Positions 4,121 to 6,914 of a stretch of 11,893 nucleotides of DNA are shown one piece after another. The stretch is from JBDRCC01 sp043822065 [NCBI: archaeon] (lineage in GTDB: Archaea; Undinarchaeota; CAZHTU01). The DNA lies in contig JBDRCC010000018.1 in NCBI GenBank assembly GCA_043822065.1, forward strand, positions 1 through 11,893, given 5' to 3'. Numbering within the stretch: the stretch's first letter is position 1; each line of letters opens with the position of its first letter. The notes below the pieces were generated by a model. That model was given only the letters and a program-made list of their open reading frames with translations. It was not told the DNA's origin and made no database searches. The position numbers were made by a program, and so were the translations under genes.

Positions 4121-5356
4121 ATGAGCTTTGCATCGTTCCTAGAAAGGGTATCGGATGAAGTTGAGGCACCGCCTCATCTTAGTCCGCAACAGCCTGTTTC
4201 TGAGCCGTCGCACGAGACGGCTGAGAGGAGGCCAGAATCCACGCAGCCGAAACCGCATGTCGAATTTAAATCTGAGGACAATTTTGACGGTTTTGAAACG
4301 CCCGACGCAAGGATAGTAATAGTCGGGGTTGGCGGCGCTGGAAACAACACCGTGACGCGGCTCGTCAATATGGGCGGGGCTCACGGCGCAGAAACTGCCA
4401 TACTCAACACTGACAAGCAGCACCTTAAGGTCTCAAAGGCTGACAAAAAGCTCCTTATCGGCTACGAGCTGACAAAGGGCCTTGGCGCCGGCGGATTCCC
4501 GAAAATAGGCAGGGAAGCTGCCCTTGAGAGCAAGGATGAAATACGGGACCTAGTAAGGAACGCAAACCTCTGCTTCCTGTCAACCGGACTTGGCGGGGGC
4601 ACGGGCACGGGAGCCGTGTCAGTCGTCGCGGAGCTTGCCAAGAAAGAGGGTGCGATAGTAATTGCAGTCTGCACCATGCCTTTCAACATGGAAAAAGCCA
4701 GAATCGAGAAAGCTGAGGAAGGCCTTATCCAGCTGAGGGAGCTGGCAGACACAGTAATAGTCATAGACAACAACAAGCTGGTCGAATACGTCCCGGACCT
4801 GCCCCTGAACAAGGCATTCGCCGTGGCGGACGAGCTGATTGCAACTATGATTCGGGGGATATCTGAGACGATAACCAAACCGTCTCTCGTAAACCTCGAT
4901 TTCGCCGACATAAAGGCGACCATGAGCAACGGCGGCGTTGCCATGATTGGAGTAGGAGAATCAAACACCAAAAACAGAGCTGAAGAAGCTGTGCAGGACG
5001 CATTGCGCCACCCGCTCCTGGACGTGGACTTTAAGGGCGCCACTGGCGCGCTTATCCACATAACGGGTGGAGAAGACCTAAGCCTGTCGGAGGCCACAAA
5101 AGTAGGTGAGATGGTTTCCAACCACTTAGACCCGCATGCGCAAGTAATATGGGGAGCAAGGATTGACCCAGGCTATACCGGGAAACTGCAAGTGATGTGC
5201 ATCCTGACCGGAGTAAAATCCCCGCAGATACTGGGCAGGCTGCCAATGGGCACGGCACGCAGCGTAGCGATGCGCAGTGAAGAGCTGCCGCTGACGCCGT
5301 ATGTCCCGCGGAAACCGCCACTGCTCAGGGAGATGAACATAGACTACATCTACTAA
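4121..5356 (+). CDS. ftsZ: Cell division GTPase FtsZ
   Basis: A tubulin homologue that polymerises with GTP into the mid-cell division ring; 411 residues. After an acidic, Pro/Glu-rich, probably disordered N-terminal extension (about 1-62) comes the GTPase domain. It shows IVIVGVGGAGNNTVTRL (65-81), NTDKQHL (96-102), the tubulin signature GLGGGTGTGA (156-165), and the T7 catalytic loop with NLDFAD (258-263; D260 and D263 complete the GTP site of the next subunit). The C-terminal domain includes GATGALIHITGGEDLSL and ARIDPGYTGKLQVMCILTG. The tail ends LREMNIDYIY, a candidate C-terminal peptide for a membrane anchor such as SepF (inference). The start fits the SD-like site and the TATA. It is the only gene on the plus strand for about 6 kb and is divergent from gatD. 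FtsZ1 versus FtsZ2 is not resolved. Confidence 0.97.
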   Translation: MSFASFLERVSDEVEAPPHLSPQQPVSEPSHETAERRPESTQPKPHVEFKSEDNFDGFETPDARIVIVGVGGAGNNTVTRLVNMGGAHGAETAILNTDKQHLKVSKADKKLLIGYELTKGLGAGGFPKIGREAALESKDEIRDLVRNANLCFLSTGLGGGTGTGAVSVVAELAKKEGAIVIAVCTMPFNMEKARIEKAEEGLIQLRELADTVIVIDNNKLVEYVPDLPLNKAFAVADELIATMIRGISETITKPSLVNLDFADIKATMSNGGVAMIGVGESNTKNRAEEAVQDALRHPLLDVDFKGATGALIHITGGEDLSLSEATKVGEMVSNHLDPHAQVIWGARIDPGYTGKLQVMCILTGVKSPQILGRLPMGTARSVAMRSEELPLTPYVPRKPPLLREMNIDYIY

Positions 5357-5379
5357 ACCAACACCAACAAACCCGAACT

Positions 5380-5401
5380 GGGCCGTCCGGAAGGGCGGCC
5401 C
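5380..5401. terminator. Hairpin 1 after ftsZ (9-bp stem, GGAA loop)
   Basis: GGGCCGTCC (5380-5388) pairs with GGGCGGCCC (5393-5401), including one T-G wobble, around a GGAA loop. As plus-strand RNA the loop is a GNRA tetraloop. It lies 23 bp after the ftsZ stop, without a following T-run on the plus strand. It may protect or process the 3' end rather than terminate. Confidence 0.6.
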
Positions 5402-5472
5402 TCACACTCCCCGAGAGGAAATAACGCTATAACAACAAACCAACAAACCCCAAAAAACAAAACCAACCCCCT

Positions 5473-5494
5473 GGGCTGCCTTAACTGGCAGCCC
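5473..5494. terminator. Hairpin 2 after ftsZ (8-bp stem)
   Basis: GGGCTGCC (5473-5480) and GGCAGCCC (5487-5494) form a perfect 8-bp stem around TTAACT. It is followed after six bases by hairpin 3. On the minus strand it is followed by the T-rich complement of 5450-5463, so as a terminator it fits minus-strand transcription better. Confidence 0.55.
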
Positions 5495-5500
5495 TTCATA

Positions 5501-5519
5501 GTCCTTATTTCATAAGGAC
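5501..5519. other. Hairpin 3 after ftsZ (8-bp stem, 3-nt loop)
   Basis: GTCCTTAT (5501-5508) and ATAAGGAC (5512-5519) are perfectly complementary around TTC. It is AT-richer than hairpins 1, 2 and 4. No T-run follows on either strand. Confidence 0.5.
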
Positions 5520-5575
5520 GCGCACCAACCAACCCCAATATATAACCCCTAAAAACCTCCTGCCTTCTGATTTTC

Positions 5576-5593
5576 GGGGGGCTTCGGCCCCCT
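5576..5593. terminator. Hairpin 4 after ftsZ (C-UUCG-G tetraloop)
   Basis: GGGGGGC pairs with GCCCCCT (six Watson-Crick pairs and an outer G-T) around TTCG. In plus-strand RNA this is the exceptionally stable cUUCGg tetraloop. In minus-strand RNA the loop reads CGAA. The minus strand has a T5 run opposite 5601-5605, just before the hairpin in the direction of the 155-residue gene's transcript. Confidence 0.6.
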
Positions 5594-5646
5594 GGAATCC
5601 AAAAAGCCCACGGCTAAGTCTGCTTGTCTAATTCGCTAAGTAAAGT

Positions 5647-6114
5647 CTATCTTTCGCGCTTTTCCCACTCGATAACTTCGCCCTTCTCGTCAAGGGTTAC
5701 TGAGTGGATGACGCCTCTGTCCTTGAACTCGAAATAGTAGCCGCCGGCATCGCGCTTCATGGCTTTTATCGGCTCGATGTTGTTCGGAAGCAGCGCGTGG
5801 GTGATTAGGTACTTCTTTGCGATTGAGGTTGCATGCGGAAGGTTTAGTGTGACGGATTTCGCGGAGAACTGGTAGTCCTCATCTTCCTTTTCCGCCTGCG
5901 CGCCAAAGCCGGAGAGCGCAGAGAATGACGTTGCAGCTACCTCTTTTTGCGCTTCGACTGATGAGTAGTCAAGCTCGTGGATGTCCTCCTTGCGGAGCTT
6001 GGCGCCCTTTTGAGGGGCTGGCGGCTTTTTTCCTGACGTAGCGTATGGGTCGCGGAACGGCCCTTCGGTCAGCTCCTCTTTTTTCTTGAAGTGCTTTAAG
6101 ATGTCAAATTTCAT
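5647..6114 (-). CDS. Conserved-looking small protein of unknown function (155 residues)
   Basis: I do not recognise a family. The first 60 or so residues are charged and low in hydrophobics (FKKKEELTEGPF, GKKPPAPQKGAK), probably disordered. The C-terminal half (about 85-155) looks folded: a helix around HATSIAKKYLITHALLP, then beta-strand-like GGYYFEFKDRG, VIHSVTLDEKG and EVIEWEKRER. The last part recalls small PepSY- or GvpO-like alpha/beta modules in pattern only; this is not an assignment. There is no signal peptide or membrane segment. The frame continues upstream through the permease gene, but the ATG at 6114 is preferred: a TATA lies 28 bp before it and the upstream part only shadows the permease. 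It follows the ABC operon on the same strand but has its own promoter. Confidence 0.75.
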   Translation of the reverse strand: MKFDILKHFKKKEELTEGPFRDPYATSGKKPPAPQKGAKLRKEDIHELDYSSVEAQKEVAATSFSALSGFGAQAEKEDEDYQFSAKSVTLNLPHATSIAKKYLITHALLPNNIEPIKAMKRDAGGYYFEFKDRGVIHSVTLDEKGEVIEWEKRER

Positions 6115-6137
6115 GCCTGTAGTAAATGGGGGACGGG

Positions 6138-6147
6138 TATATATTTC
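6138..6147 (-). promoter_or_regulatory. TATA element of the 155-residue gene
   Basis: On the minus strand AAATATATAC is centred about 28 bp before the ATG at 6114, in the gap after the permease stop. This fits a leaderless transcript and supports the short form of the downstream gene. Confidence 0.6.
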
Positions 6148-6164
6148 TTTCCAAGGCGGCTGAG

Positions 6165-6914
6165 TTATACCTCTATTTTCGAGAATGCGACGGCGCTGAG
6201 TGTGAAAATGATGATTATGGCGCCTACCAAGACGGCCAAATCTGTGCCGAGACCGAAGAGGGTGGACGATGCAAGGGTGCCGCGCAAGCCGTCGACGCCG
6301 TAGGACAACGGGTCGATGCGCGCGATAAATCCAATTGACGGCGGCAGGTTTTCGATGGGAAACAGCGCACCTGAGAGGAAAAACATGGGCATCAGGAGGA
6401 AGTTCATTATCAGCGGAAACGCGTGCATGTCCTCCATTACTGAAGCAATAGCAGTCCCCATCGCAGTGAAGAGCATGCCGACGAGGAACATAAAAAGCAG
6501 GGCAAGCGGAATCATTGAAGGATTCAGCGGCCTGAAGCCTACGACAAGGGTTATCAAAAGGACGACAATGCCCTGCGCAAAGGCAACGGTCGCGCCGCCG
6601 AGGGTCCTGCCAACGACAATTGTGAGCCTTGAAACCGGTGCCACAAGGGTCTCTTTGAGGAAGCCAAATTGCCGGTCCCATATGACCTCTATCCCCATGA
6701 ACATCGCTGTGAAGAGGATGCCCATCGCGATTATGCCCGGCGCGAGAAAGTCCAGGTAGTTTCCGCCCCCTGCTTTCTGGAATATCGGGCCGAATCCAAA
6801 CCACAGGGCAACAAGGAAAAGCAGAGGCTGGCCGAGCGAGCCAATCATGCGCGAACGCGACCGCACGTACCTCTTCAGCTGGCGTATCCAAAGGATGTAT
6901 ATCTCTTCGAGCAT
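6165..6914 (-). CDS. ABC-2 type exporter permease (DrrB/NodJ-like)
   Basis: Membrane subunit of an ABC-2 exporter; 249 residues is usual for this family. A short cytosolic N-terminus (IRQLKRYVRSRSRMIGSLGQP) is followed by about six hydrophobic segments (roughly 29-45, 56-76, 108-127, 134-156, 165-186, 226-245). Between the second and third segments lies WDRQFGFLKETLVAPVSR, the conserved cytosolic motif of ABC-2 permeases that contacts the ATPase. The region FFLSGALFPIENLPPSIGFIARIDPLSY is typical of DrrB-like proteins. The ATG directly abuts the stop of the ATPase gene (TAAATG), so the two are co-translated and surely partners. The substrate (drug, lipid or polysaccharide) cannot be told from sequence. 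Confidence 0.94.
   Translation of the reverse strand: MLEEIYILWIRQLKRYVRSRSRMIGSLGQPLLFLVALWFGFGPIFQKAGGGNYLDFLAPGIIAMGILFTAMFMGIEVIWDRQFGFLKETLVAPVSRLTIVVGRTLGGATVAFAQGIVVLLITLVVGFRPLNPSMIPLALLFMFLVGMLFTAMGTAIASVMEDMHAFPLIMNFLLMPMFFLSGALFPIENLPPSIGFIARIDPLSYGVDGLRGTLASSTLFGLGTDLAVLVGAIIIIFTLSAVAFSKIEV

What the first reader, a model, noticed from the sequence alone, without database searches (positions are those of the whole stretch)
5357..5646. Four hairpins joined by A/C-only linkers after ftsZ: possible structured RNA
The stems at 5380-5401 (GNRA loop), 5473-5494, 5501-5519 and 5576-5593 (cUUCGg loop) are strong. The linkers avoid G and T on the plus strand, so they would stay unpaired in plus-strand RNA. 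They reuse CCAACAAACCC-type units. Two of the four loops are of very stable classes. This pattern of rigid stems and open linkers suggests a functional plus-strand RNA, either an ftsZ 3' UTR or a processed ncRNA. The dull alternative is a bidirectional termination region whose minus strand supplies the T-rich tracts.
Basis: partly seen in the sequence, partly recalled or inferred. Interest (0 to 1): 0.6.

Follow-up and report, generated by a model that had tools for sequence, protein, structure and literature searches.

The report
Hairpin-and-spacer tail behind archaeal ftsZ
Behind the cell-division gene ftsZ of an uncultured archaeon lies an unusual stretch of very stable predicted RNA hairpins with long runs made only of A and C; it is most likely the end region of the ftsZ message, an extreme form of a hairpin-plus-spacer arrangement that recurs behind the same gene in related archaea.

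Summary
The gap between convergent ftsZ (+) and a 156-codon ORF (-) contains the three most stable simple hairpins of the window's plus strand and its three longest A/C-only runs (41, 20, 16 nt); other linker parts are mixed. H1 and H4 are stronger on plus through G.U pairs, and the plus strand folds better than shuffles (z -4.2; minus -0.2).

No close relative was found, so this sequence has no covariation test. In related archaea 33 of 108 sampled flanks behind the best-matching ftsZ carry a strong sense hairpin, against 22 of 395 for other genes, 1 of 20 second ftsZ paralogues and 0 of 20 rfcS. An A/C-rich spacer precedes it in 16 of 108 against 0 of 395 (post hoc rule). H1 and H2 fit this module but lack its usual U-tract; U-tracts lie mainly on minus (four against one).

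Best reading: a convergent 3'-end region, with ftsZ 3' UTR hairpins on plus and the opposing transcript's terminator on minus. A promoter-like AATATATAACC (5537-5547) leaves open a separate small plus RNA starting at H4. No transcript was observed.

The parts
4121..5356 (+). ftsZ
   Evidence: NCBIfam TIGR00065 396 bits, cut-off 295
5355..5374 (+). A/C-only spacer 1 (20 nt, starts in the ftsZ stop codon)
   Evidence: 95% unpaired on plus
5380..5401 (+). hairpin H1, 9 bp, GGAA loop, one U.G pair; first strong hairpin behind ftsZ
   Evidence: -19.7 kcal/mol; fits the spacer-hairpin rule
5431..5471 (+). A/C-only spacer 2 (41 nt); on minus a G/U tract with U4 (5462-5459) and U6 (5457-5452) behind antisense H2
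   Evidence: 99% unpaired on plus
5473..5494 (+). hairpin H2, 8 bp, perfect, forms on either strand
   Evidence: -17.6 plus, -17.0 minus
5452..5494 (-). candidate terminator of the minus-strand transcript: antisense H2 followed by a G/T stretch with T4 and T6
   Evidence: the consensus scan flags four minus-strand sites in 5391-5370 and 5478-5449
5501..5519 (+). hairpin H3, 8 bp, weak
   Evidence: -8.8 kcal/mol on either strand
5523..5538 (+). A/C-only spacer 3 (16 nt)
   Evidence: 96% unpaired on plus
5537..5547 (+). TATA-like 11-mer AATATATAACC, identical to the one before gatD and one base off the one before the 156-codon ORF
   Evidence: 3 matches with up to one mismatch, 0.03 expected; TATATA 4 against 0.47 expected
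5571..5574 (+). only T4 tract of the gap on plus, overlapping the foot of H4
5572..5597 (+). hairpin H4, 11 bp, UUCG loop, two G.U pairs; lies where a transcript from the TATA-like box would begin
   Evidence: -19.6 kcal/mol
5647..6117 (-). convergent 156-codon ORF of unknown family
   Evidence: no Pfam or NCBIfam match; no match in 394 genomes at E 0.001

Best explanation
The interval is a convergent 3'-end region. On the plus strand it is the 3' UTR and termination zone of ftsZ, built from two tandem copies of a module, A/C spacer plus GC hairpin (5355-5401 and 5431-5494), with H3 and possibly H4 behind. Because A and C cannot pair with each other, the spacers stay open and let each hairpin fold as soon as it is transcribed; the hairpins would slow the polymerase and guard the message against 3'-to-5' decay (both inferred). 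On the minus strand the same spacers read as U/G tracts, and antisense H2 followed by U4 and U6 would end the transcript that comes from the 156-codon ORF. Shown: sequence, predicted structure, strand asymmetry of pairing and of U-tracts, and the recurrence of spacer-hairpin modules behind this ftsZ in relatives. Inferred: transcription, termination points and the protective role.
For: Plus-strand fold z -4.18, minus -0.22. G.U pairs only on plus. Sense hairpins of -12 or better in 33 of 108 ftsZ flanks, antisense ones in 16 of 108, 2.6 of 108 in shuffles; 22 of 395 flanks of other genes, 10 of 235 convergent flanks (the ftsZ flanks of G004 and G010 are still among them), 1 of 20 second ftsZ paralogues, 0 of 20 rfcS. 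One flank per similarity cluster: mean 25.2 of 78. 5' 12-nt spacer with A/C at least 75%: 16 of 108 against 0 of 395. T4 within 20 nt 3' of 21 of 34 strong ftsZ hairpins, antisense T4 for 5 of 34. H1 and H2 both satisfy the spacer rule. Minus strand: T4+ tracts 4 against 1; two U4 tracts are the minimum for efficient aCPSF1 binding (PMC8716108, passages).
Against: None of the four window hairpins has a plus-strand T4 within 20 nt, so the usual ftsZ terminator is incomplete here and the plus 3' end is unplaced; a consensus scan finds terminator-like sites on minus only. At this threshold 75 of 108 ftsZ flanks have no strong hairpin, and 38 of 39 flanks of a mainly haloarchaeal set have none. 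The 395 controls come from 14 genomes, the 108 flanks from 104. The spacer rule was set after seeing the data, and against one of two control sets the A/C difference is only p 0.055. Long pure A/C runs are not general. Only 1 of 108 flanks has two strong hairpins within 150 nt, so a doubled module is rare. No RNA data.
Confidence: 0.6

Rival explanations
1. Mainly a minus-strand terminator: the A/C runs exist only because the transcript of the 156-codon ORF needs U-rich tails behind hairpins, and the plus strand is a passive complement.
For: T4+ tracts 4 on minus, 1 on plus; antisense H2 with U4 and U6 directly behind it, and T4 in the 20 nt behind antisense H4 too; all four sites of the terminator scan are on minus; U-tracts are the archaeal signal in the passages read of PMC8716108, PMC7515710 and PMC7237163.
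Against: H1 and H4 lose pairs and 5-7 kcal/mol on minus; in relatives spacers precede sense hairpins and antisense T4 is found for 5 of 34 only; in G010 the 29-nt A/C run has no T4 on its complement.
Confidence: 0.2
2. A separate small plus-strand RNA starts near 5569 from the TATA-like box at 5537-5547, begins with the UUCG hairpin H4 and runs antisense to the end of the 156-codon ORF; H4 is then not part of the ftsZ UTR. This does not exclude the best explanation for H1-H3.
For: AATATATAACC matches the box before gatD exactly and the one before the 156-codon ORF with one change; the other three TATATA sites of the window lie before gene starts; the expected start, 24-28 nt on, falls at the foot of H4; 5569-5664 folds at z -2.09, 4 of 200 shuffles as good.
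Against: No purine-rich BRE-like sequence before the box (by eye); no T4 tract behind it on plus before 5660 other than the one at the start; no transcript data; TATATA is self-complementary, so the direction rests on the flanks.
Confidence: 0.2
3. A dedicated trans-acting or processed ncRNA made of all four hairpins.
For: Strong fold on plus, GGAA and UUCG loops (stable classes, recalled), open linkers.
Against: No Rfam family at cut-off, no match beyond 25-34 nt in 394 genomes, so no conservation could be shown.
Confidence: 0.08
4. Chance: a low-complexity spacer that drifted or slipped into A/C repeats between ordinary hairpins.
For: Spacer units are loose CCAAC/AAACC repeats; long pure A/C runs are no commoner than G/T runs in ftsZ flanks.
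Against: Top three hairpins and top three A/C runs of the window coincide in one 290-nt gap; 0 of 283 gaps in three other genomes hold three sense hairpins of -12 or better.
Confidence: 0.08

Closest known systems
Archaeal U-tract (aCPSF1/FttA) terminators
   Same: Lies at a transcript end; the minus strand has U4 and U6 behind a hairpin.
   Different: U-tracts without a strictly required hairpin are described (PMC8716108, PMC7515710, passages), though hairpins lie upstream of 503 termination sites in Haloferax, where 1,543 were found in all (PMC7237163, passages); the plus strand here lacks the U-tract.
Bacterial intrinsic terminators (hairpin plus U-run)
   Same: 8-11 bp stems; relatives' ftsZ flanks often show hairpin plus U-run.
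   Different: No U-run behind any plus-strand hairpin here; long A/C spacers in front.
ftsZ 3' flanks of Undinarchaeota (G001-G006)
   Same: One strong hairpin starting 8-79 nt behind the stop, A/C-leaning spacer before it in L084-L087 (four of six), C/U tail after it.
   Different: There a run of 4-8 U follows; here several hairpins and no sense U-tract.
ftsZ 3' flank of genome G010
   Same: 29-nt A/C-only run followed by a -22.8 kcal/mol hairpin with the same GGAA loop.
   Different: One hairpin; FtsZ 58% identical.
Haloferax volcanii ftsZ2 downstream T5C terminator
   Same: A termination signal behind an ftsZ gene (PMC7237163, passage).
   Different: A plain T-stretch motif in that passage; no hairpin or A/C spacer mentioned there.

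Membership tests
Archaeal U-tract terminator, plus strand | U4+ tract close behind the stem or at the 3' end | tested here: not met
   no T4 within 20 nt of H1-H4 on plus; one T4 in the gap
Archaeal U-tract terminator, minus strand | U4+ tracts behind the ORF end | tested here: met
   four T4+ tracts, two of them 11-21 nt behind antisense H2
Archaeal U-tract terminator, minus strand | transcript 3' end at the tract, dependence on aCPSF1 | not testable with these tools
   needs RNA and a strain
ftsZ spacer-hairpin module of relatives | strong sense hairpin within 150 nt of the ftsZ stop | tested here: met
   H1, H2
ftsZ spacer-hairpin module of relatives | A/C-rich, G-poor 12 nt before the hairpin | tested here: met
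   H1 and H2 yes, H4 no
ftsZ spacer-hairpin module of relatives | sense U-tract behind the hairpin (21 of 34 in relatives) | tested here: not met
Known RNA family (Rfam 15) | score above the family cut-off | tested here: not met
   0 matches; only sub-threshold match CrcZ, 12.1 of 95 bits
Conserved structured ncRNA | compensatory changes in homologues | tested here: inconclusive
   no homologue of this sequence; in relatives' own ftsZ hairpins one two-sided change in each of two three-sequence sets, not beyond shuffles

The most novel reading that the evidence does not exclude
The 3' flank of one ftsZ paralogue is a conserved site of structured RNA across distant uncultured archaeal lineages: an A/C spacer that cannot pair with itself, then a GC hairpin, kept there to set or tune FtsZ output. 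In the window's organism the module is duplicated and combined with an antisense terminator and an embedded promoter for a small RNA.
Probability: 0.15. Interest if true: 0.7.

Novelty: new variant of a known kind. Interest (0 to 1): 0.42.

Why it matters
Passages read of two aCPSF1 papers describe archaeal termination as driven by U-tracts without a strictly required hairpin (PMC8716108, PMC7515710). A hairpin module that recurs behind one cell-division gene in about a third of sampled relatives (33 of 108 flanks), and hardly behind its paralogue (1 of 20) or rfcS (0 of 20), points to a gene-specific need for a defined 3' end or message stability, which can be tested in genomes already sequenced. 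The window shows the most elaborate form seen here and how one stretch of DNA could serve two opposing transcripts.

Tried and rejected
Coding continuation of ftsZ: the frame stays open for 52 codons behind the TAA, but A/C runs cannot contain stops, and in the one relative read (L001) the protein also ends just behind NIDY; rejected. tRNA: none. Rfam and CrcZ: below cut-off. Phage origin: four phage records with matches of 27-44 nt; FtsZ has no relative in the viral contigs scanned. DNA homologues of the gap: five matches of 25-34 nt in 394 genomes; the best (L174) lies in what looks like coding sequence (by eye). A general excess of A/C runs behind ftsZ: tested on 31 (p 0.47) and 108 flanks (p 0.78), not found. 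C over G is mildly enriched (65 flanks against 36, p 0.0016 at 150 nt; skew against 325 control flanks p 1e-5 at 60 nt). Covariation in relatives' ftsZ hairpins: 27 of 27 cells pair in each of two sets, slid versions 22-67%, but shuffles reach the two-sided count in 333 and 167 of 500, so suggestive only. Literature: one search for ftsZ, archaea, 3 UTR, hairpin, transcript found 0 papers; in the listings I saw no title or abstract opening on ftsZ 3' ends, though one listed paper mentions a T5C terminator behind Haloferax ftsZ2 (PMC7237163, passage). The FttA structure paper (term search and passages) has no 'C-rich' or 'rut', so an FttA loading role of the A/C spacers stays a guess.

Sampling and dropped rows: the 108 flanks come from 104 genomes (four give two): 30 loci, 19 and 59 of 60 stretches that I picked from the rows without a locus. 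That table was cut off, and I passed over some of its rows (a contig end, in-frame stops, others for no stated reason). L220 was dropped (contig end). L101, L230 and L232 have a stop inside the matched region and were kept from that stop on; without L230 and L232, which both count as hairpin flanks, it would be 31 of 106. Of the 80 loci (L002-L040) were used. One search read L087 and L082 on the wrong strand; one search reads L087 rightly. One search included one second paralogue (L082) and one wrong frame (L096); one search replaces it.

Full report
What the window is. The genes are archaeal: gatE, gatD, ftsZ, an ABC exporter pair (ATPase above the drrA cut-off, permease drrB-like but below it), rfcL, rfcS and a uppS-type synthase. 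FtsZ is closest to Candidatus Naiadarchaeum, 64% identity, of the phylum Undinarchaeota, and 60-65% to the six genomes held of that phylum. RfcS is closest to another genome, G041, 62%, among 149 searched, and the best GatE matches among 247 are about 48-50%. So the organism probably belongs to a lineage not held here; no whole genome of it is held. The interval is the gap between ftsZ (+, stop 5354-5356) and a 156-codon ORF (-, 5647-6117) that matches no Pfam or NCBIfam family and nothing in 394 genomes.

The observation. The four stems are there. H1, H4 and H2 are the three most stable simple hairpins of the plus strand of the window, and the three longest A/C-only runs lie in the same gap. 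A 41-nt A/C run was reached in 0 of 2000 gap shuffles. In 722 kb of three other genomes the longest A/C or G/T run is 19 nt, in 286 kb of G010 29 nt and in 385 kb of ten further genomes 24 nt. The A+C share of the first 150 nt behind ftsZ, 0.71, is reached by 0 of 108 ftsZ flanks and 0 of 325 controls. None of 283 intergenic gaps in three genomes has three sense hairpins of -12 kcal/mol or better. The other linker parts are mixed in composition.

Which strand. H1 has one and H4 two G.U pairs that become A.C on minus; folding energies are -20.9 and -21.1 on plus against -15.8 and -14.4 on minus. The A/C runs are 95-99% unpaired on plus and 28-61% on minus. GGAA and UUCG are stable loop classes, present on plus only (class recalled). 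This favours a folded plus-strand RNA. U-tracts favour minus: four T4+ tracts against one, two of them directly behind antisense H2, and the consensus scan of 5200-6300 finds four terminator-like sites, all on minus, against 1.4 expected.

Comparison with relatives. I took 150 nt behind the best-matching ftsZ from 108 loci (104 genomes) of related archaea. 33 of 108 carry a sense hairpin of at least 7 bp and -12 kcal/mol or better, 16 an antisense one, and shuffles give 2.6. Only 1 of 108 has two. Controls: 22 of 395 flanks of other genes from fourteen genomes, with matching ftsZ flanks removed; 10 of 235 convergent flanks, in which the ftsZ flanks of G004 and G010 are still counted; 1 of 20 second ftsZ paralogues and 0 of 20 rfcS. 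The difference is seen in all three G+C classes (8 of 42 against 3 of 80, 13 of 29 against 7 of 133, 12 of 37 against 7 of 112), with one flank per similarity cluster (mean 25.2 of 78) and without the Undinarchaeota (27 of 102). In a mainly haloarchaeal set it is 1 of 39, so the trait is not pan-archaeal.

The module. The 15 nt before these hairpins (-10 or better, n 42) are 61% A/C against 50% at random places (p 0.0003), and the 15 nt after them are 43% T and 10% G. Control hairpins have 40% (n 8) and 52% (n 26) A/C; p is 0.004 against the first set, 0.055 against the second and 0.006 against both. By a rule set after seeing the data, an A/C-rich (75% or more) 12-nt spacer precedes the hairpin in 16 of 108 ftsZ flanks and 0 of 395 control flanks. 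The nearest look-alike is G010: a 29-nt A/C-only run, then a hairpin with the same GGAA loop. The window's H1 and H2 fit the rule, H4 does not, and none has the sense U-tract that follows 21 of 34 strong hairpins in relatives. Very long pure A/C runs are not general, so the window is an extreme.

A promoter-like box. TATATA occurs four times in the window against 0.47 expected; three sites lie before gatD, ftsZ and the 156-codon ORF, and the fourth is at 5539-5544. The 11-mer AATATATAACC is identical at gatD and here, in plus orientation here, and one base off before the 156-codon ORF. A start 24-28 nt on falls at the foot of H4. This suggests, without showing, that H4 opens a separate small RNA.

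Mechanism and verdict. Most likely (0.6) this is a shared 3'-end region: ftsZ UTR hairpins on plus, kept independent by spacers that cannot pair, and a U/G tail behind antisense H2 that ends the opposing transcript. Two U4 tracts are the minimum for efficient aCPSF1 binding (PMC8716108, passages), which the minus strand offers. In Haloferax hairpins were found upstream of 503 termination sites (1,543 sites in all), and one hairpin from a coding region ended 59% of transcripts, so structure can act (PMC7237163, passages). No transcript was observed and no covariation could be measured on this sequence.

Noticed in passing
window 5537-5547: TATA-like 11-mer AATATATAACC in the linker, identical to the box before gatD; possible promoter of a small plus RNA.
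   Followed up: partly
window 6135-6145: Same box type 23.5 nt (box centre to ATG) before the 156-codon ORF, which suggests a leaderless transcript of its own.
   Followed up: partly
window 5647-6117: 156-codon ORF without family and without a match in 394 genomes.
   Followed up: partly
L089 (G010) behind ftsZ: 29-nt A/C-only run and GGAA hairpin; the longest A/C or G/T run in 286 kb of that genome.
   Followed up: yes
L230, L232 (G248, G315): ftsZ matches with an in-frame TAA near the end and C-rich runs plus three hairpins behind it.
   Followed up: no
L217, L236 (G085, G065): Two hairpins joined by a C-rich linker (..CCCGACCCACCCCC) and a U-tract behind ftsZ, the nearest analogue of a hairpin-spacer-hairpin layout.
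   Followed up: partly
window 5613-5619 and 5635-5641: GCTAAGT occurs twice, 22 nt apart, behind H4.
   Followed up: no
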